Part shown: positions 1-23,594 of the stretch, piece after piece
How positions within the stretch are numbered: the first letter of the stretch is position 1
Layout of the letters: each line of letters starts with the position of its first letter
From: Phaffia rhodozyma
Lineage: Eukaryota; Basidiomycota; Tremellomycetes; Cystofilobasidiales; Mrakiaceae
Assembly (NCBI GenBank): GCA_014706385.1
Contig: JACGZH010000006.1
Coordinates: 1 to 64,000 of the forward strand
Direction: 5' to 3'
Length of the DNA: 64,000 nt
Program-made: the position numbers and the translations under genes
The notes under the pieces: generated by a model
Told to the model about the DNA's origin: nothing
Database searches by the model: none
The model's input: the letters and a program-made list of their open reading frames with translations, nothing else

Positions 1-92
1 GCATCGACACTGACGTCGACACTGACATCGAACCGGCACGTGACCTGCGGCCGACACCACATACACACTCCTCAGCCATGGTCTCCCATCAA
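1..92. repeat. tail of an upstream array unit
   Basis: These bases match 9825-9916 and 19522-19613, the spacer that separates tRNA-Ile(AAT) from tRNA-iMet in the later units. The array therefore began before the window. This copy lacks one C in the stretch after CATCGA near base 32 compared with the other two. No gene lies in it. Confidence 0.9.
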
Positions 93-163
93 TGCCAAGT
101 AGCGCAGTGGAAGCGCGCCGGGCTCATAACCCGGAGGTAGCCTGATCGAGACGGGCCTTGGCA
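93..163 (+). tRNA. tRNA-iMet(CAT), initiator
   Basis: A 71-nt cloverleaf without intron. The acceptor TGCCAAG pairs with CTTGGCA, the D-arm is GCGC/GCGC, and the anticodon stem CCGGG/CCCGG encloses CTCATAA. Three G:C pairs at 29-31/39-41 and a T-loop of ATCGAGA, with A54 and A60 in place of TTC, mark it as the eukaryotic initiator. Two things are odd: the first pair is T1-A72, whereas eukaryotic initiators normally have A1-U72, and this unit has A at position 48 (base 139) where units 2 and 3 have the usual C. Confidence 0.93.
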
Positions 164-323
164 ACATTGTCTTTTTGCTCGTTTTCCCCTCGGTTTTTTC
201 CCTGGCCCCCCGTCCGGCCGTCCGTGCTGGAGGCCTGCAAGCCGGCCGCATGGTGCCACCGTCTGTACGGCCAGCCAGCCGGGCGCTCGACATACCCTCT
301 GGGCACGGAGGCCCCGGGCAAGC

Positions 324-396
324 GACCCATTAGCTCAGTTGGTAGCAGCGCAAGATTCCAAATCTTGAGGTCATCCGTTCAAGTCGGGTATGGGTC
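324..396 (+). tRNA. tRNA-Trp(CCA)
   Basis: A 73-nt intronless gene. The acceptor GACCCAT/ATGGGTC is perfect, and the anticodon stem CAAGA/TCTTG encloses TTCCAAA. The T-arm reads ATCCG/CGGGT around TTCAAGT, and a long T-run follows at 395-403. The 3' strand of the D-stem reads GCAGC, one base longer than the GAGC expected opposite GCTC, so the D-arm needs a bulge. All three units share this. Confidence 0.93.
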
Positions 397-622
397 TTTT
401 TTTTGTTTTCCCGCCCGTCTGCCTGCCCCACCACAGGGAAGCTGTGTCGACCTGGCTCGACCGTGGTGGACACGCGCACACAGGCCAGACCGGTCGGACA
501 GACAGTGACCCACACAACGGCCGATAGAAACAGAGTGCAGAGAGAGCGTGCAGAGAAAAAGAAGGGCAAAAAGGAGGGCAAAGAGGGCAAAAAGAAAGGG
601 GGACACAAAAAGTGAACATTTA

Positions 623-720
623 GACCGATGTCGGGATCGAACCGACGACCAGCAGCGAGCGAAGACGACCTTGCGGACGAGTACCGAAAACTGCTGTGAT
701 AGCCACTACACCAATCGGCC
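623..720 (-). tRNA. tRNA-Arg(TCG) with 26-nt intron
   Basis: The acceptor GGCCGAT pairs with ATCGGTC. The anticodon stem GCAGT/GCTGC has one wobble. The anticodon TCG is at bases 685-687 and the canonical intron after position 37 spans 658-683. The T-arm is GTCGG/CCGAC around TTCGATC. A T-run on this strand lies at 607-611, just beyond the 3' end. Confidence 0.88.
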
Positions 721-943
721 AGATATGATCGCTTGCCCTGCCCCGGTGACCACTACATCGGCAGCAGCAGCTGGGAGAACGTCATCGGTCGCATCGCCCG
801 TCTGGCCGAGACAGTGCGCATGCCTGCGTGAGAGCGACCGGACTGGACCGAAGGCAGGAACCCTAGCAGTCAAAGAGGAAGCAGCCACAAGGCAGAAAAA
901 AAGAACAAAAAAGAACAAAAAGCAAAAGGCAAAAAAACAAGAT

Positions 944-1029
944 CGCCGCTCTCGGGATCGAACCGAGTGCCTTCGGTGAACAAGTGTATCCTTTACAAAC
1001 CAACGCTCTTCCAGATGAGCTAAGCGGCG
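944..1029 (-). tRNA. tRNA-Tyr(GTA) with 14-nt intron
   Basis: The acceptor CGCCGCT/AGCGGCG is perfect and has the C1-G72 pair typical of eukaryotic tRNA-Tyr. The D-arm is GCTC/GAGC and the anticodon stem TTGGT/ACCGA encloses TTGTAA before the intron at 979-992. An intron is near-universal in eukaryotic tRNA-Tyr. Confidence 0.95.
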
Positions 1030-1284
1030 GGTATGGTGCCAGCACCGTTTGTCCGGATAGATTCTCGTCCAAGCGGACTCTGCGCAGCAGCAGTCGTCGT
1101 CGTCATCAGCACTGCCGACGCCACCGCCACCGCCACCGCCAACGCCACCGCCGCCACTTCCACTGCCGTCATGCTCAGCCCATCTGACGGCCGGATCCGA
1201 CCGCACCTCCGCCTGGCCCAGCCCGGCCGCCCACCAACCATCAGGAAGGATGGGAAACACAGCAAAAGAGGAAAAAAAAGAGTT

Positions 1285-1370
1285 GCCCAGAGCGAGAATC
1301 GAACTCGCGGCTGAGGATCACACTCGGGTGACGGTATGAGACCTACGTTTTACCACTAAACTACCCAGGC
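1285..1370 (-). tRNA. tRNA with 15-nt intron, probably Met(CAT), isotype uncertain
   Basis: The acceptor GCCTGGG/TCTGGGC, D-arm GTTT/AAAC and T-arm GCGAG/CTCGC (loop TTCGATT) are all good. Counting from the D-arm puts CTCATA at positions 32-37, so the anticodon is CAT and an intron lies at 1320-1334. The anticodon stem is poor: TAGGT against ATCCT gives only three pairs. The intron can form a small TCAC/GTGA hairpin. It is either an elongator tRNA-Met with a weak anticodon stem or a decayed or unusually processed gene. The Gly- or His-like D-arm does not settle the isotype. Confidence 0.6.
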
Positions 1371-1521
1371 ACGTTGACTGCCCAGCCGCCCCGGCGGTCG
1401 ACCTCGATGGGCTACGTCTGGCCGAGCGGACGGTGTGGGCCGGGTCCTGACCACACCGGTACACCAACACATCGACACACCAACACCCTTAGAGACAACA
1501 CGACCGGGCGACGGGCACCAG

Positions 1522-1593
1522 GCCCGAATAGCTAAGTGGTTATAGTGCGCCGCTCGTAACGGTGAGGTCCGTGGTTCAAATCCGCGTTTGGGC
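1522..1593 (+). tRNA. tRNA-Thr(CGT)
   Basis: A 72-nt intronless gene. The acceptor is GCCCGAA/TTTGGGC, the D-stem GCTA/TAGT, the anticodon stem CGCCG/CGGTG around CTCGTAA, and the T-arm CGTGG/CCGCG around TTCAAAT. The TTTTT at 1597-1601 is the likely terminator. Confidence 0.93.
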
Positions 1594-1804
1594 TTGCTTT
1601 TTGCTCCGATGTCCGCTGTGTGTATCGGGTCGGCCGTGTGTATCGGGTCGGCCGTGCGTGTCATGCCGGCCGGGCCACGTGCGGCGGGCGGACAGGTCGG
1701 CCAGCGATGTAAGCACACCTGCCAGCGGACACGCGCCGACGGACCCTTGCCAGCGGACACACCGCCAGAACGAGACTCGCGAGGGCAATAGGCCGACAAC
1801 GACC

Positions 1805-1886
1805 GGTTCTATGGTGAAGTTGGTTATCACGCGAGATTCTGATTGACTCACCTTCTCGAATCCCCAGTTCGAATCTGAGTAGGACC
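1805..1886 (+). tRNA. tRNA-Gln(CTG) with 10-nt intron
   Basis: The acceptor GGTTCTA/TAGGACC has wobble pairs, the D-arm is GTGA/TCAC, and the anticodon stem CGAGA/TCTCG encloses TTCTGA before the intron at 1843-1852. One T-stem pair is mismatched (CCCAG/CTGAG). A run of eight T lies at 1892-1899. Confidence 0.92.
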
Positions 1887-2070
1887 TTTCCTTTTTTTTC
1901 GCCCTCTTTTTCCCGTCCTCCCTCCTGCCGCCTGTGCCGTCTTCTGTCGGACTCGGCCCGGTCTGGCGTGTGCCGTCCGGTGCGGCCTTCTCTCGTCTGT
2001 CTCGTCCTGTCTCGTCCTGTCTCGTCCTGTCTTGTCATGTCTCGTCTTTTTTCCACCGACGCTTACCTTT

Positions 2071-2167
2071 ACTCCATTGGCGAAGTGGTTATCGCATTGT
2101 TCTTATAGGTTGCCGTCCGTGCCTCTAGTGCTTAACAAGGATCATGAGTTCGAACCTCATATGGAGT
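2071..2167 (+). tRNA. tRNA-Ile(TAT) with 25-nt intron
   Basis: The acceptor ACTCCAT/ATGGAGT is perfect, the D-arm is GCGA/TCGC, and the anticodon stem TTGTT/AACAA encloses CTTATA before the intron at 2108-2132. An intron is common in fungal tRNA-Ile(TAT). Confidence 0.93.
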
Positions 2168-2246
2168 ATCTTTTGCCTCCCGGACGGACGGACGGACGGC
2201 CGGCTGGAGACCGACAAACTGACCGGCCAGGCCTGTGCGATCACTG

Positions 2247-2345
2247 GCGGGATTGGTGTAGTGGTATCACGCCGTCTTCGGGCTTTGCTGGCTCGCATGA
2301 AACACGTGTCTGACGGAGGTCCTCGGTTCAATCCCGGGATCGCGC
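2247..2345 (+). tRNA. tRNA-Pro(CGG) with 28-nt intron
   Basis: The anticodon stem CCGTC/GACGG is perfect and encloses TTCGGG before the intron at 2283-2310. The T-arm is CTCGG/CCGGG around TTCAATC. The acceptor GCGGGAT/ATCGCGC contains a G4:G69 clash in all three units, while the other two Pro genes have T4-G69 there. T5 follows at 2351-2355. Confidence 0.88.
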
Positions 2346-2570
2346 CTTGTCTTTTTGCCGACCTGGCTTTTATCTTGTATCTTTTGTCTTTTGTCTTTTG
2401 TCTTTATCGCCATCTTATCTTCTTCTTTCTTTCTTGCCGATCGATCGTGTCTGTCGATCTTATCTGCCATCTCTGTCGGCTGGCTGTGTATCTTATCATG
2501 CATCTTATCTTGCGATGGCTTCTCTCGGTCTGTCCATCGTGGCCGTGTGCTGAGGGCAAAAAGACGTCAT

Positions 2571-2653
2571 GGTCACCGCCAGGATCGAACTGGCGACCTA
2601 TTGCGCACCGGGTGAGATGTGAAGCAAGCGTCATACCACTAGACCAGGCGACC
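2571..2653 (-). tRNA. tRNA-Val(CAC) with 12-nt intron
   Basis: The acceptor GGTCGCC/GGTGACC is complete with wobble. The anticodon stem CTTGC/GCAAT has four pairs and a mismatched outer pair. It encloses TTCACA before the intron at 2606-2617. The T-arm is GCCAG/CTGGC around TTCGATC. Confidence 0.9.
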
Positions 2654-2836
2654 GATCGACACGGCCTTTTCTCCGCCGGGCTCCGTACTCCGGGGCTCGA
2701 CGTCCGACGTCCGACGTCCGATATCCGATGGGCGATCGGACGGATCGGCCGGACGCCCACCGCCTCGGATAACCCTAGCAGAGCCAACGCCCACACATCC
2801 ACTTGGCCATACATCCACACAACCAGACGAAAGCTA

Positions 2837-3001
2837 AAGGCAAAGATGGTGGAACGGTCGTCATGGCCGGCTGCCAGCTTGTATGCATCAGGAAATCGCG
2901 GGTTCGAACCCCGTCTTGGTCTAGTGGTCCCACCACCCATTCGCTCTGGCCGAGTGGCCCAGCGGTAAGGCGTCTGACTACGAGGATCTTTGCCTTCTTT
3001 T
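2837..3001 (+). other. predicted precursor of the permuted tRNA-Arg: leader, intervening segment, trailer, terminator
   Basis: The leader segment AAGGCAAAGAT (2837-2847) is exactly complementary to the trailer ATCTTTGCCTT (2986-2996), so 11 bp could close the transcript around the permuted tRNA. TTTT follows at once (2998-3001) and would end RNA polymerase III transcription. The 25-nt segment 2923-2947 between the halves would be removed at the tRNA ends. TACG at 2979-2982 can pair with TGTA at 2880-2883, the kind of anticodon-intron pairing used by eukaryotic tRNA splicing endonuclease. Confidence 0.65.
2887..2983 (+). tRNA. tRNA-Arg(ACG), circularly permuted gene (3' half before 5' half)
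   Basis: The 3' half (positions 38-73) lies at 2887-2922: anticodon-stem strand TCAGG, variable loop AAATC, T-arm GCGGG/CCCGT around TTCGAAC, then acceptor strand CTTGGTC. The 5' half (positions 1-37) lies downstream at 2948-2983: acceptor strand GGCCGAG, the D-arm, stem strand TCTGA, and CTACGA with anticodon ACG at 2980-2982. Joining 37 to 38 gives a full cloverleaf with a 7-bp acceptor (three G-U pairs) and a 5-bp anticodon stem. Box B therefore precedes box A. No other 5' half fits upstream of the T-arm and no B box follows the 5' half. All three units have it. Confidence 0.87.
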
Positions 3002-3172
3002 GTTTTGGTCTTTCTGTTGTGTTGACACTGTGTTGCTGGTGCATTGCATTGCATGTTCTCGTTGTGTTCTCGTTGTGTTCTCGCTATGTTTTTACTGTGT
3101 TGCCATTGTTATGCTGTTGTCTTTCTGCCATATGTCTTTTTCTCTTTCTATATTGATGCATCTATCGTTGAC

Positions 3173-3391
3173 AGAAAAAAAGAAGAAAGAAAAGAAGAAA
3201 AAGAAGAAAGAAAGAAGAAAAAGAAGGAAAAAAAGGAAAAGAGGGAAAGAGGGAAAAGAAGGGAAAGAGGGAAAAGAGGGGAAAAAGAGGGGAAAAAGAA
3301 GGGAAAAAGAAGGAAAAAAGAGGAAAAAAGAGGAAAGAAAAAGGACAAAGAAAAAACGGGAGAGGAAAAAGAAAAAAGAAAAAAAAAAAGA
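3173..3391. repeat. A/G-only tract in spacer, unit 1
   Basis: About 220 bases of almost pure purine built from GAAAA, AGAAGA and GGGAAAAGA motifs fill most of the 530-bp spacer between the permuted tRNA-Arg and tRNA-Pro(TGG). The rest of that spacer is T-rich DNA (2998-3172) and AGTAACACAGCA-type repeats (3430-3485). Copies at 12938-13139 and 22634-22829 differ in length. Confidence 0.9.
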
Positions 3392-3526
3392 GTACACAGC
3401 ATAGGGTAACAGCGGACGCTATGTGGCGGGTAATCCTATGAGTAGCACAGCAAGTAACACAGCAACTGACACAGCAAGTAACCCTACACCGACCACGCCA
3501 CCCGCCCAGACGGGCCGAACAAAAAG

Positions 3527-3619
3527 GCGCGATTCCGGGATTGAACCGAAGACCTCCAAGAGATGTGCACGGCAGAAAGTGTGCCCAAACTTGGCGTGAT
3601 ACCACTACACCAATCACGC
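3527..3619 (-). tRNA. tRNA-Pro(TGG) with 22-nt intron
   Basis: The acceptor GCGTGAT/ATCGCGC and the anticodon stem CCAAG/CTTGG are complete. TTTGGG precedes the intron at 3562-3583. The T-arm is TTCGG/CCGGA around TTCAATC, and a T-run on this strand lies at 3521-3525. Confidence 0.93.
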
Positions 3620-3762
3620 ACGATGGCAGCCCGTCAGCCCGTCTGTCTGTCTGCCTGGCGGGGTGTGAGCATGCGGAGACAGCAAACACAGACAGCAAGG
3701 AAGGATCGACGCGACAGAAGGCAGAGAGAACGGAAGTGGGCAAAAAGAAAAAGAGAAAGGAC

Positions 3763-3871
3763 GACCGCTGTAGGATTTGAACCTACGCCTTCAGAGAAGA
3801 GTAGCTGTCGCGTCGTCCCACAGAGGGGACTCGTTCGAGGCTACCGCGTTAGACCACTCCGCCAAACGGCC
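3763..3871 (-). tRNA. tRNA-Ser(CGA) with 27-nt intron
   Basis: A type II tRNA with a 14-nt variable arm. The acceptor is GGCCGTT/AGCGGTC, and the anticodon stem GTAGC/GCTAC encloses CTCGAA before the intron at 3807-3833. The T-arm is GTAGG/CCTAC around TTCAAAT. Confidence 0.92.
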
Positions 3872-4041
3872 TTGGATGGACGCCGCTCGGTGAGCGGTGA
3901 GCACAAGCCGGTGGGCAGCAGACCAAGAGAAGACACACAGAACACGACACACAACACGACACACAACATGCCATATGAAATGCAACGAAATCAAATACGC
4001 CAAGATAAAACAAAACACACCGAAACACACCAAAAAGAGAT

Positions 4042-4122
4042 GGAGACTCCGGGAATCGAACCCAGGAATGACACATGATCGACAGTGCGAAGCGTCCAGT
4101 TTACCAACTAGCCTAAATCCCC
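4042..4122 (-). tRNA. tRNA-Ala(CGC) with 10-nt intron
   Basis: The acceptor is GGGGATT/AGTCTCC and the anticodon stem GACGC/GTGTC encloses TTCGCA before the intron at 4076-4085. The variable loop has four bases. The D-stem GGCT/AACT has one mismatch. The next gene starts only 35 bp away, the tightest spacing in the unit. Confidence 0.9.
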
Positions 4123-4157
4123 AGCTGCCCTGCCCCCCCGGCCGGGACAAAAGGAAT

Positions 4158-4255
4158 GATGAAGACGAGATTTGAACTCGCGCCATTACTGACTGCGGTC
4201 TGGACTCGGAAGAGAGACCTAAACACAGCGCCTTAGACCACTCGGCCACTTCACC
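4158..4255 (-). tRNA. tRNA-Leu(TAG) with 19-nt intron
   Basis: A type II tRNA. The acceptor is GGTGAAG/CTTCATC and the anticodon stem CTGTG/CGCAG encloses TTTAGG before the intron at 4199-4217. The 11-nt variable arm is the same as in the Leu(AAG) gene at 4997, so the two probably share an ancestor. Confidence 0.93.
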
Positions 4256-4269
4256 AGCATGCTTTCCCT

Positions 4270-4350
4270 GCGTTTGTGGTGTTGTTTGTGGTGTTGTTTG
4301 TGGTGTTGTTTGTGGTGTTGTTGTGGTGTTGTTTGTGGTGTGTGGTGTGG
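4270..4350. repeat. 12-bp minisatellite TTTGTGGTGTTG, variable copy number
   Basis: The 12-mer runs for five to six copies here, about two copies in unit 2 (14009-14045) and four in unit 3 (23709-23768). It lies in the spacer between Leu(TAG) and Thr(AGT). Confidence 0.9.
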
Positions 4351-4490
4351 TGTGGTGCTGTGCTTTGTGCGGAACCCTAACGAGCACGCGTCGACCAGAC
4401 GCCCGCCGGGACGACAGGGAAGGATACAACAGAAAAAGAAGAAGAAGAAATGAACGGAAATGAACGGAGAATAAAAAAAAAGAAGAATGT

Positions 4491-4562
4491 TCCTGCTAGC
4501 CGATTTGAACGACTGACCTCGACATTACTAGTGTCGCGCTCTACCAACTGAGCTAAGAAGGA
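4491..4562 (-). tRNA. tRNA-Thr(AGT)
   Basis: An intronless 72-nt gene. The D-arm is GCTC/GAGC, the anticodon stem CGACA/TGTCG encloses CTAGTAA, and the T-arm is AGTCG/CGGCT around TTCAAAT. The acceptor TCCTTCT/AGCAGGA has one T5:C68 mismatch, present in all units. Confidence 0.92.
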
Positions 4563-4754
4563 CGGTTGGTGTCCACCGAGCGCGTCGGTACGTCCTTCGT
4601 GTCCTGCCCCTGTGTCGGCACAGACGCACTGCTCGTCCGAACGGCAGCACACACCATCATCGCACCAGCCGGCGAGACCGAACACGGACGATCGGCAGAT
4701 GTGCACCCGCCAGCACAGAGCCGATCGGTGTGTGGGACGAGAAAAAAAAAGGAT

Positions 4755-4824
4755 ACAACCGCGGGGAATCGAACCCCGGCCTAGTGCATGGCAAGCACCA
4801 ATGATACCATTTCACCACAGCTGT
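4755..4824 (-). tRNA. tRNA-Gly(GCC)
   Basis: A 70-nt intronless gene. The acceptor ACAGCTG/CGGTTGT uses two wobbles, the anticodon stem GGTGC/GCACT encloses TTGCCAT, and the T-arm CGGGG/CCCCG is perfect. A T9 run on this strand lies at 4742-4750. Confidence 0.93.
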
Positions 4825-4996
4825 TGGATGCTGTACGGTCTGTTCATTCAGTCCACACTCCAAAACGGACCGGCAGACAGCAAGGGGGTGTGGCAGTGTT
4901 GCAACGTGGCATCATACTACCATGGCACCGCACCTGAGAGCACAGCCCGGCCAGGCAGACCCGAGAGGCACGGCCCGTGCCGGCCGGACAAAAAGT

Positions 4997-5088
4997 GATG
5001 AGGGCGAGATTCGAACTCGCGCCATTACTGACTGCGGGGCATAGAAAGAGCCTTAACACAGCGCCTTAGACCACTCGGCCACCTCACC
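4997..5088 (-). tRNA. tRNA-Leu(AAG) with 13-nt intron
   Basis: The acceptor is GGTGAGG/CCTCATC and the anticodon stem CTGTG/CGCAG encloses TTAAGG before the intron at 5038-5050. The variable arm is of Leu type. The body is close to Leu(TAG) at 4158 apart from the anticodon and intron. Confidence 0.93.
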
Positions 5089-5298
5089 TGGATGAAGGCC
5101 TGTCCGGCCGGTCGGCCAGTGTGCTCGCAGCAGCCGGCCTGTCTCGGTGCAACACATGGTGTGTGATGTGGTGGGCAGGACGGAGCATGACCGAGAGGAG
5201 CAGAGCGAAAGAAGAGAGTGCAAAAAAGGCAGCGGGCGGAAAAAAAAAAAAAAGACTACCAAAAAACACAAAAAACACATAAAACGACACAAAAAAGT

Positions 5299-5370
5299 GG
5301 AGATTGTAAGAATCGAACTCACGACCTCAACCATGCTAAGATTGCGCTCTGCCAACTGAGCTAAATCCCC
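5299..5370 (-). tRNA. tRNA-Ala(AGC)
   Basis: An intronless 72-nt gene. The acceptor is GGGGATT/AATCTCC, the D-arm GCTC/GAGC, the anticodon stem CAATC/GGTTG around TTAGCAT, and the T-arm GTGAG/CTTAC. A T6 run on this strand lies at 5291-5296. Confidence 0.94.
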
Positions 5371-5600
5371 GTGTGTGTCTGTCTGTCCGTGCTACCAGCC
5401 CAGATCGTCAGACATGCCCGCGCGACCCACCAGCCGACCCACCTCTCACCTCTGTTCAACCCTCCATGCACCCTTCCACCGTCGACGGCCCACCAAGCGC
5501 ACACCAAGCCAGCAAACAAAAACACAAAGAACGAAACAGAAACAGAAACAGAAACAGAAACAGAAACAAAAAATCACACCAACACACAAAAACGAAGCTA

Positions 5601-5693
5601 GCCCCATGGGGGGGTCGAACCCCCAGCCTTCAGATGCCAACTGTCAAGAGACTGGGTAAGAGTCTGACGCTCTACCGATTGAGCTAACAGGGC
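5601..5693 (-). tRNA. tRNA-Lys(CTT) with 21-nt intron
   Basis: The acceptor is GCCCTGT/ATGGGGC, the D-arm GCTC/GAGC, and the anticodon stem TCAGA/TCTGA encloses CTCTTA before the intron at 5636-5656. The T-arm GGGGG/CCCCC encloses TTCGACC. Confidence 0.94.
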
Positions 5694-5861
5694 GGTTATA
5701 GTCCCCAGCCCGGCCCGTACCCCTAGACACCAACGCCGCCACCCAACTAGCCCCTCCCACGCCCCGGTCGTGTGCCTCAGAGTCTTGCCGCCGTCCGCCC
5801 AGTGTCTTGTACTGCCATCGCCTCCGCCCCCGCCACGCGCATAAAAAAAAATGACAAAAAT

Positions 5862-5932
5862 GAGATGTAGGTGAATCGAACACCTGTCTCCAGAATGGAA
5901 ATCTGGAATAATAACCATTATACGAACATCCC
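5862..5932 (-). tRNA. tRNA-Gly(TCC)
   Basis: A 71-nt intronless gene. The acceptor is GGGATGT/ACATCTC, the anticodon stem CCAGA/TCTGG encloses TTTCCAT, and the T-arm AGGTG/CACCT encloses TTCGATT. A T-run on this strand lies at 5855-5859. Confidence 0.93.
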
Positions 5933-6121
5933 GTTGATGGGAGGGTCCACATACATCAGTCCTATACCCTGCGCATACAGTGCACACTCTACAGCCCGCC
6001 AGCATACCAAGCGTCTCACGTGTACACCCACATTCTCACCCACCTTCTCACTCACATTCTCACTCACACCCCACTCACACCCCACTCACACCCCAACCAC
6101 GCCCGCCGCAAAAAAAGAGAA

Positions 6122-6206
6122 ACCCCGCCTGGGGATTGAACCCAGAATCTTCACCTCTCTCACCAGACAGTAGGAAGGAGACGCGTTACCATTCTGCCAA
6201 CGGGGC
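6122..6206 (-). tRNA. tRNA-Arg(CCT) with 14-nt intron
   Basis: The acceptor is GCCCCGT/GCGGGGT and the T-arm CTGGG/CCCAG encloses TTCAATC. TTCCTA sits at 32-37 and the intron at 6157-6170. The anticodon stem TCTCC/GGTGA has one T:T mismatch. Confidence 0.87.
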
Positions 6207-6305
6207 GTGTGTGTGCCCGGGCAGGGTGCACTCGCTCTACCCGGCCCACACTCCCGCACACTCCCGCACACTCCCGCACCCACACACACCTCACGCACCC
6301 CATCC

Positions 6306-6386
6306 GGACAGATGGCCGAGCGGTCTAAGGCGTCAGACTCAAGTTCTGATATCGCAAGATGCGGGGGTTCGAATCCCCCTCTGTTC
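6306..6386 (+). tRNA. tRNA-Leu(CAA)
   Basis: A type II, 81-nt intronless gene. The acceptor is GGACAGA/TCTGTTC, and the anticodon stem TCAGA/TCTGA encloses CTCAAGT. A 13-nt variable arm and the T-arm GGGGG/CCCCC follow. It is the last gene kept in unit 3. Confidence 0.94.
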
Positions 6387-6536
6387 ATCTTTTGCCCCCC
6401 GCCGAGAGATTCCGTGTGGTTTTGCAACCAAGACTCTGTTTCTGATAGCATCATACCAGACCTCACCTCGCCGCACCTCACCGCACCGCACCGCACTTCG
6501 CCCCACCGGCCGACACACCACGCCTCCATCCCACAC

Positions 6537-6607
6537 GGGCTTATGGTGTAGTGGTATCACATTCGCTTTGCATGCGAAAGGCCGCGGGTTCAATCCCTGC
6601 TGGGTCC
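6537..6607 (+). tRNA. tRNA-Ala(TGC)
   Basis: A 71-nt intronless gene. The acceptor is GGGCTTA/TGGGTCC, the anticodon stem TTCGC/GCGAA encloses TTTGCAT, and the T-arm is GCGGG/CCTGC. TTTTT follows at 6611-6615. Confidence 0.93.
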
Positions 6608-6748
6608 ACTTTTTGCCGTCCGGTCGGAAGCATGCTGACCGGCGGCCACCCGCTCACAGCCTACCGCACGACGGAGCAGGCTGCACACGACTGCGCACGA
6701 CTGCAGACGACTGCAGACGACTCGACCGATTCGGCGTGCTTGTACTAG

Positions 6749-6820
6749 TCCTCATTGGTCAAACGGTTTACGATATCAGCTTTTCACGCTGAGGACCCGG
6801 GTTCGACTCCCGGATGGGGA
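6749..6820 (+). tRNA. tRNA-Glu(TTC)
   Basis: The acceptor is TCCTCAT/ATGGGGA, the anticodon stem TCAGC/GCTGA encloses TTTTCAC, and the T-arm CCGGG/CCCGG encloses TTCGACT. It has no intron. T5 lies at 6827-6831. Confidence 0.94.
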
Positions 6821-7012
6821 ACGATCCTTTTTGTTTTCTCCCCGGGCTGCCTCGTCTGAGGGCCAGCTTGTCGGCAGGCATGGTCCCGGTGTCGCACGAT
6901 CGGGCTGATGGGCCGGCCGACCGATGGACACACAGCGGCGGGCGGGCAGACGGCGGAGCGAGCGGTGCCTGGTCGATGAGTAGGATACTGGGCAGAGACC
7001 GGCAGTCATCAG

Positions 7013-7083
7013 AGTTGCATGGTGTAACGGTTATCACTTGAGTCTAACACACTCACGACCCCAGTTCGACTCTGGGTGCGACT
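7013..7083 (+). tRNA. tRNA-Val(AAC)
   Basis: The acceptor is AGTTGCA/TGCGACT, the anticodon stem TGAGT/ACTCA encloses CTAACAC, and the T-arm CCCAG/CTGGG is perfect. It has no intron. A series of T-rich blocks follows from 7087. Confidence 0.93.
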
Positions 7084-7356
7084 ACTCTTTTTGTTCTTTT
7101 TGCTCTTTTTTCTTGCTCTTTTTTCTTGCTCTTTTTTCTTGCTCTTTTTTCCTGTTCTTTTTTCTGCTCCTTTGTTCCTTTTGTTTTCTCTGTGCAGATG
7201 CAGCATCTGTGACGCCGGCCTGGTCGCACCGGGCGATGTTGCGTCCACAGCTGCCACTACTCGATCGCAGGACGACAAAGCGGCTGCCACTGTGCTGTGT
7301 GCATGTGTGCAAGCGTGCCTGTGGATGATCTGTCCGATGGCGCGGCAGCCTCATAC

Positions 7357-7428
7357 GGAGTTATAGCACAGCGGTAGTTGCGGCTGGTTGCAACCCAGCA
7401 GGTCCCTGGTTCAATCCCGGGTGACTCC
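7357..7428 (+). tRNA. tRNA-Cys(GCA)
   Basis: The acceptor is GGAGTTA/TGACTCC, the anticodon stem GCTGG/CCAGC encloses TTGCAAC, and the T-arm CCTGG/CCGGG encloses TTCAATC. It has no intron. T6 follows at 7429-7434. Confidence 0.94.
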
Positions 7429-7615
7429 TTTTTTCTTGCCGGCCGAGCATGCTGGTGGAAGATGGATGATGTCCATCGCAAGAACATACCAAGAACACGC
7501 ACACCTCATGGACGGCAGAAGACGAGAGGGGAAGTACTGCACAGGAAAGGGAGAGGGAAAAAAAATGAGGAGACGAAAAGACGACAAAAAGACGACAAAA
7601 AGACGACAAAAAGAC

Positions 7616-7687
7616 TGCCCCGTACGGGCTCGAACCGTAGACCTTGGAGTTAACAGCTCCACGCTCTACCAACTGAGCTACAGGGCA
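7616..7687 (-). tRNA. tRNA-Asn(GTT)
   Basis: The acceptor is TGCCCTG/CGGGGCA, the D-arm GCTC/GAGC, and the anticodon stem TGGAG/CTCCA encloses CTGTTAA. The T-arm is TACGG/CCGTA. It has no intron. T-runs on this strand come from the AAAAAGACGAC repeats at 7577-7611. Confidence 0.95.
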
Positions 7688-7882
7688 TGGGATGGTCGCC
7701 TGCTGTGTCCGAGCACTCAGAGAGCACACGCCGACGGTCAGTGCCCAGCATGTTTTGCCTGCCGCGTCAGCACACACACCGACCCGGCTGAGACCGACCG
7801 AGTGAGTGCCAGCCGGACGGCCCGACGGCCCGACAGCCACCCAGACGGGCCATGGCCTGATGGACGGCGCTGACTGTCACCG

Positions 7883-7967
7883 GCCGTCATAGCTCAATTG
7901 GTGGAGCGTATGACTGAAGACATCTGTCCGCAATCATAAGGTCGCCTGTTCGATTCAGGCTGACGGC
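7883..7967 (+). tRNA. tRNA-Phe(GAA) with 13-nt intron
   Basis: The acceptor GCCGTCA/TGACGGC and the anticodon stem TATGA/TCATA are perfect. CTGAAG precedes the intron at 7920-7932. The T-arm is GCCTG/CAGGC around TTCGATT. A long T-run follows at 7973-7981. Confidence 0.95.
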
Positions 7968-8191
7968 ATCCCTTTTTTTTTCCGGTCCTCGCTCTGTGTG
8001 TCAGTGAGGATGGCTTCGATGGTGTGGCCGTCTTTTTTTTTGTTTGGGCTGGCTGCCCGGTGTGTGCGTACTATGCATACATGAACGACAACCATAGACA
8101 CACATAGGCAAAGGCATAGAAGAGAAGAAGAAGAAAAAAAAAAGCAAAAAGAGCAAAGGCCACGGTGGCAAAGTACAGGGTGCAAAAGAAA

Positions 8192-8273
8192 GCTGTCTGC
8201 AGGATTCGAACCTGCGCCCTCAAAGAGGAAGAGATTTCTAATCTCTCATCGTAGACCACTTGATTAAGACAGC
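8192..8273 (-). tRNA. tRNA-Ser(AGA)
   Basis: A type II, 82-nt intronless gene. The acceptor GCTGTCT/AGACAGC is perfect, the anticodon stem AGAGA/TCTCT encloses TTAGAAA, and a 14-nt variable arm precedes the T-arm GCAGG/CCTGC. Confidence 0.95.
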
Positions 8274-8661
8274 GTATGGTCTCGGTCTGCCGATCGACTG
8301 CCCATAGCCTGTGCTCAACAGCCATCCAGCCAGTTGGTCTGCCCAGCGCACACGTGTCGGCGTGCTGTGCTGTGCTGTGCTGTGCTCGGTGCGTCTTTCG
8401 GAGCGTGTGCTGCCAAACATGCGCCGTCAAAGAGAGCAAAAGAAAAAGAAAGAGAAAAAGAAGGAGACATACAGACCAAAGAAAAAAAGATAACGATCGA
8501 TGGCCGTCGACGGACAAACACAACAAAGCAAGACAACCATACAGCTGTACAGCAAAAGAGAATGGAAAGAAAAAATGCAAATGCAGATGCAAATGCAAAT
8601 GCAAATGCAAATGCAAGTACAAATGCAAGTACAAAAGAGAGGAGCAAAAGGCAAAAAGTGC
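8274..8661. other. longest tRNA-free spacer apart from the purine-tract one
   Basis: This 388-bp spacer between Ser(AGA) and Asp(GTC) has a GTGCT repeat (8364-8390), an A-rich block (8433-8490) and an ATGCAA hexamer run at 8574-8632. I see no T-arm (B box) motif on either strand and no reading frame worth calling. The unit 2 copy is 17971-18358. Confidence 0.7.
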
Positions 8662-8732
8662 TCCCGGACGGGGAGTCGAACCCCGGTCTCCCGCGTGACA
8701 GGCGGAAATCATAACCGTTAGACCATCCAAGA
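8662..8732 (-). tRNA. tRNA-Asp(GTC)
   Basis: The acceptor is TCTTGGA/TCCGGGA, the anticodon stem TCCGC/GCGGG encloses CTGTCAC, and the T-arm CGGGG/CCCCG encloses TTCGACT. It has no intron. T5 on this strand lies at 8653-8657. Confidence 0.94.
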
Positions 8733-8963
8733 GTCGGTTGATTGTCAGCCTTGTCCGCTCGCCAGGTGGCTGGACAGCTGGCCGGTGCATGCACCCCATA
8801 CCGTGCATTCAACCACACAGTACCCGAAGGCACACACCAGCGCTGATACCAGTGGTCAGAACGGACATACAAAAACAAGACGAAACAGAAAGACGAAAGG
8901 AAAGAAGGACAAGGAATAAAAGAAAAAAAGAAACGAGAGCAAAAGAAAAGACCAAAAGAGAGA

Positions 8964-9034
8964 TCCCCAACCGGGAGTCGAACCCGGGCCTACCGCGTGA
9001 GAGGCGGTTATCATAGCCGTTAGACAATTGAGGA
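8964..9034 (-). tRNA. tRNA-Glu(CTC)
   Basis: The acceptor is TCCTCAA/TTGGGGA, the anticodon stem ACCGC/GCGGT encloses CTCTCAC, and the T-arm CCGGG/CCCGG encloses TTCGACT. It has no intron. Confidence 0.94.
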
Positions 9035-9244
9035 CTTGATGGCTGTCATCCGTGTCCAGACAGCTTGTCCAGACAGCTTGTCCATGCGTCAGAGACGTCT
9101 CCACCGGGTGCACACATCGCTTGTCTGCTGCCGAGAAAGTGGCGGAGAGTGGCAAAAAGTGAGTGAAAAGTGGCAGAAAACAACGAAGAGCGACAGGAAG
9201 CGCTCGGGAAAAGGAAACAAAGAACGAAAGGAAAAGGAAAAAAG

Positions 9245-9330
9245 GCACGCTCCCAGGATTGAACTGAGGACCTCCATGAGACAAGGCGCAAAGACCCTAA
9301 CATGGCGCGATACCACTACACCAAGCATGC
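9245..9330 (-). tRNA. tRNA-Pro(AGG) with 15-nt intron
   Basis: The acceptor is GCATGCT/AGCGTGC and the anticodon stem CCATG/CATGG encloses TTAGGG before the intron at 9280-9294. The T-arm is CTCAG/CTGGG around TTCAATC. Confidence 0.93.
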
Positions 9331-9587
9331 ACGATGCCTCCCAGCCCAGCCCAGACACCATAGGCCCATGTCTGGTCGGACACTGTCCAGCACAGCCGGG
9401 TGTATATCTGCGTTCCCATCGTCGCCACTGCACCACCACATCGTCACACCGTCACAACACTGCATCGCTCACCATGGAGCGTGCCAGTCGACAACAATGC
9501 CACACAGACCGCAACGGTCGAGAACAGGAGGGGTGCAAAAAAGATGGCAAAAAAAGATGGCGAAAATTAGAAAAAGAAAGAAAAAGT

Positions 9588-9660
9588 GATCAATGAGGGG
9601 GTCGAACCCGCGACCTTGGCGTTATTAGCACCACGCTCTAACCAACTGAGCTAATCGATC
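9588..9660 (-). tRNA. tRNA-Ile(AAT)
   Basis: A 73-nt intronless gene. The acceptor is GATCGAT/ATTGATC, the D-arm GCTC/GAGC, and the anticodon stem TGGTG/CGCCA encloses CTAATAA. The T-stem GCGGG/CCCTC has one mismatch. It is the last gene of the unit. Confidence 0.93.
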
Positions 9661-9720
9661 CGATGACTGTCAGGCCCACCCGGCAGACCATGGCCAGGTG
9701 TACCGTCGGTCGCACCAGTC

Positions 9721-9857
9721 GATGGTGTGACTGGCATTGACACTGGCATTGGTAATGACACTGGTGTTGGCACTGGCATCGACACTGGTGCTGGCACTGG
9801 CATCGACACTGGTGCTGGCACTGGCATCGACACTGACGTCGACACTGACATCGACAC
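9721..9857. repeat. minisatellite of GGCACTGGCATCGACACTGGT type
   Basis: Imperfect repeats of about 18-24 bp occupy most of the spacer before tRNA-iMet and open all three frames on the minus strand without any coding signal. The same block is at 19418-19554, and its end is at bases 1-34. Confidence 0.85.
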
Positions 9858-9916
9858 CGGCACGTGACCTGCGGCCGACACCACATACACACTCCTCAGC
9901 CATGGTCTCCCATCAA

Positions 9917-9987
9917 TGCCAAGTAGCGCAGTGGAAGCGCGCCGGGCTCATAACCCGGAGGTCGCCTGATCGAGACGGGCCTTGGCA
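9917..9987 (+). tRNA. tRNA-iMet(CAT), unit 2
   Basis: This is the unit 2 copy of the initiator gene at 93. It has the usual C48 and keeps the T1-A72 pair. Confidence 0.93.
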
Positions 9988-10145
9988 ACATTGTCTTTTT
10001 GCTCGTTTTCCCTCGGTTTTTTCCCTGGCCCCCGTCCGGCCGTCCGTGCTGGAGGCCTGCAAGCCGGCCGCATGGTGCCACCGTCTGTACGGCCAGCCAG
10101 CCGGGCGCTCGACATACCCTCTGGGCACGGAGGCCCCGGGCAAGC

Positions 10146-10218
10146 GACCCATTAGCTCAGTTGGTAGCAGCGCAAGATTCCAAATCTTGAGGTCATCCGT
10201 TCAAGTCGGGTATGGGTC
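10146..10218 (+). tRNA. tRNA-Trp(CCA), unit 2
   Basis: Copy of the gene at 324, including the extra D-stem base. Confidence 0.93.
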
Positions 10219-10434
10219 TTTTTTTGTTTTCCCGCCCGTCTGCCTGCCCCACCACAGGGAGCTGTGTCGACCTGGCTCGACCGTGGTGGACACGCGCACA
10301 CAGGCCAGACCGGTCGGACAGACAGTGACCCACACAACGGCCGATAGAAACAGAGTGCAGAGAGAGCGTGCAGAGAAAAAGAAGGGCAAAAAGGAGGGCA
10401 AAAAAGAAAGGGGGACACAAAAAGTGAACATTTA

Positions 10435-10532
10435 GACCGATGTCGGGATCGAACCGACGACCAGCAGCGAGCGAAGACGACCTTGCGGACGAGTACCGAA
10501 AACTGCTGTGATAGCCACTACACCAATCGGCC
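10435..10532 (-). tRNA. tRNA-Arg(TCG), unit 2
   Basis: Copy of the gene at 623, with the 26-nt intron kept. Confidence 0.88.
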
Positions 10533-10754
10533 AGATATGATCGCTTGCCCTGCCCCGGTGACCACTACATCGGCAGCAGCAGCTGGGAGAACGTCATCGG
10601 TCGCATCGCCCGTCTGGCCGAGACAGTGCGCATGCTGCGTGAGAGCGACCGGACTGGACCGAAGGCAGGAACCCTAGCAGTCAAAGAGGAAGCAGCCACA
10701 AGGCAGAAAAAAAGAACAAAAAAGAACAAAAAGCAAAAGGCAAAAAAACAAGAT

Positions 10755-10840
10755 CGCCGCTCTCGGGATCGAACCGAGTGCCTTCGGTGAACAAGTGTAT
10801 CCTTTACAAACCAACGCTCTTCCAGATGAGCTAAGCGGCG
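10755..10840 (-). tRNA. tRNA-Tyr(GTA), unit 2
   Basis: Copy of the gene at 944, with the 14-nt intron. Confidence 0.95.
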
Positions 10841-11083
10841 GGTATGGTGCCAGCACCGTTTGTCCGGATAGATTCTCGTCCAAGCGGACTCTGCGCAGCA
10901 GCAGTCGTCGTCGTCATCAGCACTGCCGACGCCACCGCCACCGCCACCGCCGCCACTTCCACTGCCGTCATGCTCAGCCCATCTGACGGCCGGATCCGAC
11001 CGCACCTCCGCCTGGCCCAGCCCGGCCGCCCACCAACCATCAGGAAGGATGGGAAACACAGCAAAAGAGGAAAAAAAAGAGTT

Positions 11084-11169
11084 GCCCAGAGCGAGAATCG
11101 AACTCGCGGCTGAGGATCACACTCGGGTGACGGTATGAGACCTACGTTTTACCACTAAACTACCCAGGC
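11084..11169 (-). tRNA. tRNA, probably Met(CAT), unit 2
   Basis: Copy of the gene at 1285. The weak anticodon stem is unchanged, so it is not a one-off error. Confidence 0.6.
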
Positions 11170-11320
11170 ACGTTGACTGCCCAGCCGCCCCGGCGGTCGA
11201 CCTCGATGGGCTACGTCTGGCCGAGCGGACGGTGTGGGCCGGGTCCTGACCACACCGGTACACCAACACATCGACACACCAACACCCTTAGAGACAACAC
11301 GACCGGGCGACGGGCACCAG

Positions 11321-11392
11321 GCCCGAATAGCTAAGTGGTTATAGTGCGCCGCTCGTAACGGTGAGGTCCGTGGTTCAAATCCGCGTTTGGGC
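11321..11392 (+). tRNA. tRNA-Thr(CGT), unit 2
   Basis: Copy of the gene at 1522. Confidence 0.93.
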
Positions 11393-11585
11393 TTGCTTTT
11401 TGCTCCGATGTCCGCTGTGTGTATCGGGTCGGCCGTGCGTGTCATGCCGGCCGGGCCACGTGCGGCGGGCGGACAGGTCGGCCAGCGATGTAAGCACACC
11501 TGCCAGCGGACACGCGCCGACGGACCCTTGCCAGCGGACACACCGCCGGAACGAGACTCGCGAGGGCAATAGGCCGACAACGACC

Positions 11586-11667
11586 GGTTCTATGGTGAAG
11601 TTGGTTATCACGCGAGATTCTGATTGACTCACCTTCTCGAATCCCCAGTTCGAATCTGAGTAGGACC
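11586..11667 (+). tRNA. tRNA-Gln(CTG), unit 2
   Basis: Copy of the gene at 1805, with the 10-nt intron. Confidence 0.92.
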
Positions 11668-11841
11668 TTTCCTTTTTTTTCGCCCTCTTTTTCCCGTCCT
11701 CCCTCCTGCCGCCTGTGCCGTCTTCTGTCGGACTCGGCCCGGTCTGGCGTGTGCCGTCCGGTGCGGCCTTCTCTCGTCCTGTCTCGTCCTGTCTCGTCCT
11801 GTCTTGTCATGTCTCGTCTTTTTCCACCGACGCTTACCTTT

Positions 11842-11938
11842 ACTCCATTGGCGAAGTGGTTATCGCATTGTTCTTATAGGTTGCCGTCCGTGCCTCTAGT
11901 GCTTAACAAGGATCATGAGTTCGAACCTCATATGGAGT
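11842..11938 (+). tRNA. tRNA-Ile(TAT), unit 2
   Basis: Copy of the gene at 2071, with the 25-nt intron. Confidence 0.93.
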
Positions 11939-12017
11939 ATCTTTTGCCTCCCGGACGGACGGACGGACGGCCGGCTGGAGACCGACAAACTGACCGGCCA
12001 GGCCTGTGCGATCACTG

Positions 12018-12116
12018 GCGGGATTGGTGTAGTGGTATCACGCCGTCTTCGGGCTTTGCTGGCTCGCATGAAACACGTGTCTGACGGAGGTCCTCGGTTC
12101 AATCCCGGGATCGCGC
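12018..12116 (+). tRNA. tRNA-Pro(CGG), unit 2
   Basis: Copy of the gene at 2247, with the G4:G69 clash and the 28-nt intron. Confidence 0.88.
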
Positions 12117-12338
12117 CTTGTCTTTTTGCCGACCTGGCTTTTATCTTGTATCTTTTGTCTTTTGTCTTTTGTCTTTATCGCCATCTTATCTTCTTTCTTT
12201 CTTGCCGATCGATCGTGTCTGTCGATCTTATCTGCCATCTCTGTCGGCTGGCTGTGTATCTTATCATGCATCTTATCTTGCGATGGCTTCTCTCGGTCTG
12301 TCCATCGTGGGCGTGTGCTGAGGGCAAAAAGACGTCAT

Positions 12339-12421
12339 GGTCACCGCCAGGATCGAACTGGCGACCTATTGCGCACCGGGTGAGATGTGAAGCAAGCGTC
12401 ATACCACTAGACCAGGCGACC
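12339..12421 (-). tRNA. tRNA-Val(CAC), unit 2
   Basis: Copy of the gene at 2571, with the 12-nt intron. Confidence 0.9.
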
Positions 12422-12654
12422 GATCGACACGGCCTTTTCTCCGCCGGGCTCCGTACTCCGGGGCTCGACGTCCGACGTCCGACGTCCGATATCCGATGGG
12501 CGATCGGACGGATCGGCCGGACGCCCACCGCCTCGGATAACCCTAGCAGAGCCAACGCCCACACATCCACTTGGCCATACATCCACACAACCAGACGAAA
12601 GCTAAAGGCAAAGATGGTGGAACGGTCGTCATGGCCGGCTGCCAGCTTGTATGC

Positions 12655-12751
12655 ATCAGGAAATCGCGGGTTCGAACCCCGTCTTGGTCTAGTGGTCCCA
12701 CCACCCATTCGCTCTGGCCGAGTGGCCCAGCGGTAAGGCGTCTGACTACGA
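12655..12751 (+). tRNA. tRNA-Arg(ACG), permuted, unit 2
   Basis: The 3' half is at 12655-12690 and the 5' half at 12716-12751. The complementary leader (12605-12615) and trailer (12754-12764) are also kept. Confidence 0.87.
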
Positions 12752-12937
12752 GGATCTTTGCCTTCTTTTGTTTTGGTCTTTCTGTTGTGTTGACACTGTG
12801 TTGCTGGTGCATTGCATTGCATGGTTGTGTTCTCGTTGTGTTCTCGCTATGTTTTTACTGTGTTGCCATTGTTATGCTGTTGTCTTTCTGCCATATGTCT
12901 TTTTCTCTTTCTATATTGATGCATCTATCGTTGACAG

Positions 12938-13139
12938 AAAAAAAAGAAGAAAAAAGAAGAAAAAGAAGAAAAAGAAGAAAAAAGGAAAAGAGGGAAAAGA
13001 AGGGAAAAGAGGGGAAAAAAGAGGGGGAAAAAGAAGGGAAAAAAGAAGGGAAAAAAGAGGAAAAAAGAGGAAAAAAGAGGAAAGAAAAAGGACAAAGAAA
13101 AAACGGGAGAGGAAAAAGAAAAAAGAAAAAAAAAAAAGA
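12938..13139. repeat. A/G-only tract in spacer, unit 2
   Basis: The unit 2 copy of the purine tract at 3173. It has a different arrangement of AGAAGAAAAA blocks. Confidence 0.88.
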
Positions 13140-13274
13140 GTACACAGCATAGGGTAACAGCGGACGCTATGTGGCGGGTAATCCTATGAGTAGCACAGCA
13201 AGTAACACAGCAACTGACACAGCAAGTAACCCTACACCGACCACGCCACCCGCCCAGACGGGCCGAACAAAAAG

Positions 13275-13367
13275 GCGCGATTCCGGGATTGAACCGAAGA
13301 CCTCCAAGAGATGTGCACGGCAGAAAGTGTGCCCAAACTTGGCGTGATACCACTACACCAATCACGC
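13275..13367 (-). tRNA. tRNA-Pro(TGG), unit 2
   Basis: Copy of the gene at 3527, with the 22-nt intron. Confidence 0.93.
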
Positions 13368-13510
13368 ACGATGGCAGCCCATCAGCCCGTCTGTCTGTCT
13401 GCCTGGCGGGGTGTGAGCATGCGGAGACAGCAAACACAGACAGCAAGGAAGGATCGACGCGACAGAAGGCAGAGAGAACGGAAGTGGGCAAAAAGAAAAA
13501 GAGAAAGGAC

Positions 13511-13619
13511 GACCGCTGTAGGATTTGAACCTACGCCTTCAGAGAAGAGTAGCTGTCGCGTCGTCCCACAGAGGGGACTCGTTCGAGGCTACCGCGTTAG
13601 ACCACTCCGCCAAACGGCC
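13511..13619 (-). tRNA. tRNA-Ser(CGA), unit 2
   Basis: Copy of the gene at 3763, with the 27-nt intron. Confidence 0.92.
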
Positions 13620-13777
13620 TTGGATGGACGCCGCTCGGTGAGCGGTGAGCACAAGCCGGTGGGCAGCAGACCAAGAGAAGACACACAGAACACGACACAC
13701 AACATGCCATATGAAATGCAACGAAATCAAATACGCCAAGATAAAACAAAACACACCGAAACACACCAAAAAGAGAT

Positions 13778-13858
13778 GGAGACTCCGGGAATCGAACCCA
13801 GGAATGACACATGATCGACAGTGCGAAGCGTCCAGTTTACCAACTAGCCTAAATCCCC
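13778..13858 (-). tRNA. tRNA-Ala(CGC), unit 2
   Basis: Copy of the gene at 4042, with the 10-nt intron. Confidence 0.9.
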
Positions 13859-13893
13859 AGCTGCCCTGCCCCCCCGGCCGGGACAAAAGGAAT

Positions 13894-13991
13894 GATGAAG
13901 ACGAGATTTGAACTCGCGCCATTACTGACTGCGGTCTGGACTCGGAAGAGAGACCTAAACACAGCGCCTTAGACCACTCGGCCACTTCACC
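13894..13991 (-). tRNA. tRNA-Leu(TAG), unit 2
   Basis: Copy of the gene at 4158, with the 19-nt intron. Confidence 0.93.
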
Positions 13992-14189
13992 AGCATGCTT
14001 TCCCTGCGTTTGTGGTGTTGTTTGTGGTGTCGTTTGTGGTGTGTGGTGTGGTGTGGTGCTGTGCTTTGTGCGGAACCCTAACGAGCACGCGTCGACCAGA
14101 CGCCCGCCGGGGCGACAGGGAAGGATACAACAGAAAAAGAAGAAGAAGAAATGAACGGAATGAACGGAGAATAAAAAAAAGAAGAATGT

Positions 14190-14261
14190 TCCTGCTAGCC
14201 GATTTGAACGACTGACCTCGACATTACTAGTGTCGCGCTCTACCAACTGAGCTAAGAAGGA
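14190..14261 (-). tRNA. tRNA-Thr(AGT), unit 2
   Basis: Copy of the gene at 4491, with the same acceptor mismatch. Confidence 0.92.
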
Positions 14262-23559: not shown

Positions 23560-23594
23560 AGCTGCCCTGCCCCCCCGGCCGGGACAAAAGGAAT

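What the first reader, a model, noticed from the sequence alone, without database searches (positions are those of the whole stretch)
2837..3001. Circularly permuted tRNA-Arg(ACG) gene in a fungus
Bases 2887-2922 are a complete tRNA 3' half and bases 2948-2983 a complete 5' half in reversed order. Joined at 37/38, they give a normal tRNA-Arg(ACG) with paired acceptor, D, anticodon and T arms. Permuted tRNA genes are known from red and green algae, nucleomorphs and a few archaea. I am not aware of a fungal case. The gene is intact in all three units, so it is probably the functional Arg(ACG) source. It would mature through a circular intermediate.
Basis: partly seen in the sequence, partly recalled or inferred. 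Interest (0 to 1): 0.96.

Follow-up and report, generated by a model that had tools for sequence, protein, structure and literature searches.

The report
Back-to-front arginine tRNA gene in fungus
A fungus appears to encode one of its arginine tRNAs with the two halves in reversed order, in about 44 near-identical copies inside large tRNA gene arrays; the RNA would have to be closed into a circle and cut elsewhere to work, an arrangement known so far from algae and archaea.

Summary
Bases 2887-2922 (3' half) and 2948-2983 (5' half), joined in reversed order, give a normal tRNA-Arg(ACG); at default settings ARAGORN calls it only in rotated form. A scanner for this arrangement finds only the window's three copies and none in 40 random windows. 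The locus lies in a 9.7 kb tandem unit of about 34 tRNA genes. At least 44 copies were seen genome-wide; 37 of 43 aligned copies are identical over 165 bases. No contiguous Arg(ACG) gene was found, though these searches are not exhaustive. The host is a fungus: its Trl1 tRNA ligase falls beside Tremellomycetes. Leader and trailer can form an 11-bp helix and the leader can pair with the anticodon loop, giving a bulge-helix-bulge-like junction. The first T4 run follows the 5' half. Most likely it is a working type II circularly permuted tRNA gene, matured through a circular RNA. New here: fungal host, array copy number, and a candidate A box in the leader that would restore promoter order. No RNA data were available; the junction may be off by one base.

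The parts
2837..2847 (+). Leader arm of the terminal helix; can pair with 2986-2996 (11 of 11 pairs)
2847..2857 (+). Candidate A box (TGGTGGAACGG) in the leader, 55 bases before the B box, normal order and spacing
   Evidence: 22 of 1188 spacer windows and 7 of 2000 shuffles score as well; function is inference
2878..2886 (+). Leader segment that can pair with the anticodon loop (intron-like 3' end)
2887..2922 (+). tRNA-Arg(ACG) 3' half, positions 38-73
2901..2911 (+). B box (GGTTCGAACCC)
   Evidence: sequence
2923..2947 (+). 25-nt intervening linker between the mature 3' and 5' ends; no T4, no CCA directly after the 3' half
2948..2983 (+). tRNA-Arg(ACG) 5' half, positions 1-37; D-arm A box at 2955-2965
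2984..2996 (+). Trailer; 2986-2996 can pair with the leader
2998..3006 (+). Two T4 runs (2998 and 3003), probable Pol III terminator
12605..12769 (+). Second identical copy of the permuted gene
22302..22466 (+). Third identical copy of the permuted gene
1..25890 (.). Tandem tRNA array, about 2.7 units of about 9.7 kb, each with 33 contiguous tRNA genes plus the permuted one

Best explanation
It is a circularly permuted nuclear tRNA-Arg(ACG) gene of a basidiomycete fungus, type II (junction in the anticodon loop). RNA polymerase III makes one RNA: leader, 3' half, linker, 5' half, trailer (inferred). Leader and trailer pair with each other and with the anticodon loop, so the ends mimic an ordinary tRNA intron (shown only as a possible fold). 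The splicing endonuclease cuts both ends at the intron site and Trl1 ligase joins the halves, closing a circle (inferred). RNase P and tRNase Z then remove the 25-nt linker at the acceptor end, and CCA is added (inferred). A34 would become inosine and the tRNA reads CGU, CGC and CGA (recalled biology). As no contiguous Arg(ACG) gene was found, it is probably the main or only source of this tRNA.
For: Full cloverleaf on rotation; no chance hits. U8, G15:C48, G18G19, U33, U54U55C56 and A58 are present in the joined sequence (sequence; 42 of 73 alignment columns invariant with recalled human and yeast Arg(ACG)). 11-bp leader-trailer helix plus anticodon-loop pairing possible. No T4 from leader to end of 5' half, T4 right after. 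At least 44 copies; of 43 aligned, 37 identical over 165 bases and 40 with both halves perfect, while 36 of 164 downstream spacer columns vary. No contiguous copy found. Fungal-type ligase present; endonuclease family PF01974 with one clear and one marginal match. U73 is shared with Arg(CCT) and with 6 of 6 Arg(TCT) loci examined (8 were fetched), though 8 of the 32 other unit tRNAs have it too. CGU, CGC and CGA make up 45 of 1897 codons in four open frames.
Against: No transcript or mature tRNA was seen. The free minimum-energy fold (-65.1 kcal/mol) is not the cloverleaf one (-55.5 when the cloverleaf is forced). With the junction at 37/38 the host's usual pair between base 32 and intron base -3 is absent (C against U; a pair is possible at -2), while 13 of 15 fitted introns of the array keep it. 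A diverged contiguous Arg(ACG) gene is not excluded. Sameness of copies may come from array homogenisation rather than selection: the neighbouring tRNA-Val varies as little (2 of 84 columns) and the upstream spacer not much more (12 of 167 columns).
Confidence: 0.87

Rival explanations
1. A silent relic: a rearranged tRNA copy caught inside a homogenised array, with the real Arg(ACG) made from an undetected contiguous gene.
For: Array homogenisation can keep a dead gene uniform; the genome searches score only the best candidates, and searches had no internal positive control.
Against: 40 of 43 aligned copies have both halves perfect while 36 of 164 downstream spacer columns vary; the stems, the leader-trailer helix and the T run are intact; searches that do find the permuted gene found nothing but array copies.
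Confidence: 0.07
2. A split tRNA: the two halves are separate transcripts joined in trans.
For: The halves are physically separate and many copies exist, so joining in trans could occur; no call shows a transcript.
Against: Only 25 bases lie between the halves and no T4 separates them; the leader-trailer helix can join the ends of one RNA.
Confidence: 0.03
3. Assembly artefact or chance resemblance.
For: The array is repetitive; the 44th copy (near C13:1328.7k) and four of the five differing aligned copies carry short indels that look like consensus errors.
Against: The same order occurs in at least 44 copies on nine contigs; no scanner hits in random sequence.
Confidence: 0.01

Closest known systems
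Type II (37/38) circularly permuted tRNA genes of Cyanidioschyzon merolae, Ostreococcus, Micromonas and the Bigelowiella natans nucleomorph (Soma 2014 review, PMC3978253: abstract, sections 5, 6, 8 and the first part of sections 4 and 10 read)
   Same: 3' half before 5' half, junction in the anticodon loop, linker length (25; its table gives 1-74), T-stretch after the 5' half, CCA not encoded, BHB-like junction
   Different: Fungal host; Arg(ACG) is not in the table of 34 genes; at least 44 array copies; no TATA-like element seen upstream; candidate A box in the leader
Permuted tRNA genes of Auxenochlorella (PMC12636532, passages seen) and of the Amorphochlora nucleomorph (PMC4494063, passages seen)
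   Same: Reversed halves; in Auxenochlorella an initial tRNAscan-SE set was incomplete without them
   Different: Algal nucleus or nucleomorph; the passages mention no array
Permuted tRNAs of the archaeon Thermofilum pendens (as described in PMC3978253)
   Same: Reversed halves, splicing-motif junction
   Different: Junction 59/60, CCA encoded, linker 1 and 7 bp
Intron-containing pre-tRNAs of the same array
   Same: Break at the intron site; anticodon loop can pair with intron-like sequence
   Different: Halves in normal order; base 32 pairs with intron -3 in 13 of 15 fitted
Entamoeba tandem tRNA arrays (recalled, not looked up)
   Same: Large tandem arrays of tRNA genes
   Different: Other supergroup; about 34 genes per unit here

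Membership tests
Circularly permuted tRNA gene, type II | 3' half upstream of 5' half, giving a standard cloverleaf on rotation | tested here: met
Circularly permuted tRNA gene, type II | Junction at 37/38 in the anticodon loop | tested here: inconclusive
   7-nt loop and recalled yeast sequence favour 37/38; the host intron rule fits 38/39
Circularly permuted tRNA gene, type II | BHB-like motif from leader and trailer | tested here: met
   possible fold with the cloverleaf forced; relaxed form, not the free minimum
Circularly permuted tRNA gene, type II | One transcription unit: no terminator between halves, T-stretch after the 5' half | tested here: met
   (sequence signals only)
Circularly permuted tRNA gene, type II | CCA not encoded (eukaryotes) | tested here: met
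   sequence after 2922 is AGTGG
Circularly permuted tRNA gene, type II | Upstream TATA-like element (reported for most C. merolae genes, not universal) | tested here: not met
   2777-2836 is 47% AT, no TATA-like string by eye
Circularly permuted tRNA gene, type II | Circular RNA intermediate | not testable with these tools
   needs RNA
Circularly permuted tRNA gene, type II | Charged mature tRNA | not testable with these tools
   needs RNA
Split (trans-spliced) tRNA | Halves transcribed from separate loci | tested here: not met
   25-nt linker without T4; no RNA evidence

The most novel reading that the evidence does not exclude
In this fungus the only gene for the Arg(ICG) tRNA is permuted, in dozens of array copies, and its leader carries a replacement A box so that the ordinary TFIIIC machinery reads it (leader A box, then B box in the 3' half), with the leader serving at once as promoter and as splicing helix. 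Every CGU, CGC and CGA codon would then depend on a circular tRNA precursor.
Probability: 0.35. Interest if true: 0.93.

Novelty: new variant of a known kind. Interest (0 to 1): 0.86.

Why it matters
[quoted passage not shown] A fungal case would show that the arrangement also arises in opisthokonts that carry the fungal Trl1 ligase, and it offers a concrete, testable answer to how Pol III could read such a gene. If the organism can be cultured, dependence on a circular tRNA precursor could be studied genetically.

Tried and rejected
Remnants of a tandem duplication (outer halves) near the gene: no signal for the 5' half upstream (427 of 500 shuffles as good) and a weak one for the 3' half downstream (40 of 500), so the duplication model is neither shown nor refuted. 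Other permuted tRNAs in the window: none found by the scanner, which demands T8, a 3-bp D stem, an unbroken 5-bp anticodon stem, a 7-nt loop and a variable loop of 4-5, so class II tRNAs and other junctions are not covered. Relatives: no match in the phage collection or IMG/VR (exact 28-base string); other fungal genomes cannot be searched here. 18S to name the organism: not found, no positive control. A paper on this genome or on fungal tRNA arrays: none recognised by title (one search listed 15 of 23).

Weak or faulty steps: one search used a pattern whose D loop is one base longer than the permuted gene's, so its zero has no internal control; one search likewise has none. One search gave 42 hits, all array copies, and 1 hit of its backward control. 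One search had 0 first-look candidates, not even the permuted copies, so its zero is weak. In one search the 44th copy was sliced wrongly; one search repeats the count without it. In one search one of 16 pre-tRNAs did not fit and the automatic fit of tRNA-Met looks wrong (by eye its -3 base is G and pairs); tRNA-Ala(CGC) is a true exception; base -2 pairs with base 32 in 3 of 15. In one search one of the 33 A boxes was mis-extracted. All 7 variable columns of the 11-base leader helix come from one copy, L046, which has 19 differing alignment columns.

Full report
What is there. The window is the start of contig C11 of a 19.77 Mb, 15-contig genome. Its first 25.9 kb are about 2.7 tandem copies of a 9.7 kb unit with 33 contiguous tRNA genes on both strands, many with introns, plus the locus in question. 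At 2837-3001 of unit 1 (and 12605-12769, 22302-22466) lies a tRNA whose halves are in reversed order: leader, 3' half (2887-2922), 25-base linker (2923-2947), 5' half (2948-2983), trailer, T run. Joined, the halves give a 72-nt tRNA-Arg(ACG) with all stems paired. ARAGORN calls it in the rotated form, and also with trailer and leader placed as an intron when introns are allowed; in native order it finds nothing at default settings and two unrelated weak calls at a lowered limit. Rfam's tRNA model misses the native locus.

More than chance. A scanner that asks for a T arm, then an acceptor complement, D arm and an anticodon stem pairing back across the gap finds exactly three places in the window, the three copies, and none in 40 random 64 kb sequences, both strands.

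Genome-wide. One search lists 43 copies of the 5' half (42 exact) and a 44th was read in L027; one search had 44 first-look candidates. They lie on C4, C5, C6, C7, C9, C10, C11, C12 and C13, mostly at 9.5-9.8 kb spacing. Of 43 copies aligned (3 from the window, 40 fetched), 37 are identical over 165 bases, one is cut by a contig end and five differ: one copy in 19 alignment columns, the other four by 1-2 bases. Both halves are perfect in 40 of 43. The 44th, left out of that count, has single-base deletions in short runs that look like consensus errors. Variable columns: downstream spacer 36 of 164; upstream spacer 12 of 167; the 16 bases before the leader helix 0 of 16 (42 copies); leader helix 7 of 11, all in one copy; rest of leader 2 of 39; halves 1 of 72 plus one insertion column; linker 4 of 25 plus four insertion columns; trailer 1 of 13; T-run stretch 6 of 10; neighbouring tRNA-Val 2 of 84. 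No column of the locus between 2821 and 3006 differs in two or more copies, except that the insertion column after 2892 is filled in two. Homogenisation may explain part of this.

Is there another Arg(ACG)? A BLAST of the joined 72-mer gave 80 matches, each to one half (44 candidates, 40 scored). Patterns of the 5' half with up to 3 mismatches (43 hits) or a variable D loop (42 hits, backward control 1) hit the same array copies only. Of the 13 dispersed places among the 63 best tRNA hits, 12 were looked at: 8 Arg(TCT), 2 Thr(TGT), 1 Met and one small cluster with Lys(TTT). A diverged gene is not excluded. CGU, CGC and CGA codons are used (13, 7 and 25 of 1897 codons in four open frames, some of which may include introns).

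Host. The genome has a Trl1-type tRNA ligase (PF08303; exons on C8). Its best listed relatives are Kwoniella, Vanrija, Naganishia and other Tremellomycetes, then Agaricomycetes and Dacrymycetes (850 hits, 120 listed; class names recalled). A quick tree of 29 rows, drawn with midpoint root, puts it beside the 11 sampled Tremellomycetes on a long branch of 1.43. So 'fungus' holds: Agaricomycotina, perhaps an early branch of Tremellomycetes.

How it would work. Leader 2837-2847 and trailer 2986-2996 can form 11 pairs; next to this the anticodon loop can pair with leader bases 2878-2883, and C32 with G2885 in the forced-cloverleaf fold. This resembles a relaxed bulge-helix-bulge at the intron site. 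The free fold is about 10 kcal/mol lower and lacks the cloverleaf, which counts against the simple picture, though tRNAs are often not predicted minima (recalled). Endonuclease family PF01974 matches at two places, one clear (38.9 bits, cut-off 27), one marginal (26.6, or 27.4 with neighbours). In 13 of 15 fitted introns of the array base 32 pairs with intron base -3. The permuted gene keeps this only if the junction is moved one base (38/39); with 37/38 the pair is at -2. The mature sequence will decide. The algal pathway (splicing machinery, circle, RNase P and tRNase Z, CCA; PMC3978253 section 6) then applies by inference.

Promoter. In permuted genes the B box precedes the A box, a positional relationship called unsuitable for TFIIIC binding (PMC3978253 section 5). 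Here the leader holds TGGTGGAACGG at 2847-2857, 55 bases before the B box, against 43-82 in the 33 contiguous genes of the unit. It scores 10.4 bits (real A boxes: median 13.2, each left out in turn); 22 of 1188 spacer windows and 7 of 2000 shuffles of the same stretch do as well. Three further A-box-like strings lie at 2917, 2947 and 2955, after the B box. A start 12-19 bases upstream (recalled spacing) would begin the RNA just before the leader helix. This is a suggestive, testable idea, not a result. No TATA-like element was seen.

Known or new. The 2014 review counts 34 permuted genes from six algal species and one archaeon; its table has no Arg(ACG) and no fungus. Later papers add Auxenochlorella and the Amorphochlora nucleomorph (passages). 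Searches of the held open-access library: 'permuted tRNA' (45 papers, 40 listed), with fungi (11, 9 listed), with basidiomycete (0), 'circularly permuted' with tRNA and Tremellomycetes (0), recent variants (15, 14 listed). I saw no fungal case in titles or abstract starts; I did not read most of these papers, and most subscription papers are outside the library. I rate it a new variant of a known kind: same principle, new kingdom, array copy number, and a possible new promoter solution.

Noticed in passing
1-25890; G000 contigs C4-C7, C9-C13: Giant tRNA arrays: 9.7 kb units with about 34 tRNA genes and at least 44 copies of the marker locus, so roughly 1,500 tRNA genes in a 20 Mb genome (an estimate; first look had 2082 candidates). 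They sit at one end of five large contigs, in the same orientation relative to that end, and four short contigs (19-55 kb) appear to be array throughout, which suggests subtelomeric arrays.
   Followed up: partly
L030 and L036 ends (C9:2285805, C12:1579819): Two different contigs stop at the same unit position (9053) with the same printed last bases, perhaps a real array-telomere junction or a shared assembly break.
   Followed up: no
array unit, e.g. 2071-2168, 3762-3871, 5600-5693: I took 16 of the 33 contiguous unit tRNA genes as intron-bearing, among them Pro, Leu, Lys, Val, Met, Phe and Arg(CCT); 13 of 15 fitted keep a 32 to -3 pair.
   Followed up: partly
L009-L016, L037-L040: tRNAs at dispersed places (Arg-TCT, Thr-TGT, Lys-TTT) were not noted in the array unit, as if the array and the scattered genes share out the set.
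   Followed up: partly
2917-2927: A-box-like TGGTCTAGTGG spans the 3' acceptor end and the linker and equals the A box of the neighbouring tRNA-Val(CAC).
   Followed up: no
27140-27233 (-) and 43720-43813 (+): Two equally scoring tRNA genes (51.8 bits) outside the array in the window.
   Followed up: no
whole genome G000: No 18S match with a conserved 131-base query, so rDNA may be missing from the assembly (no positive control).
   Followed up: no
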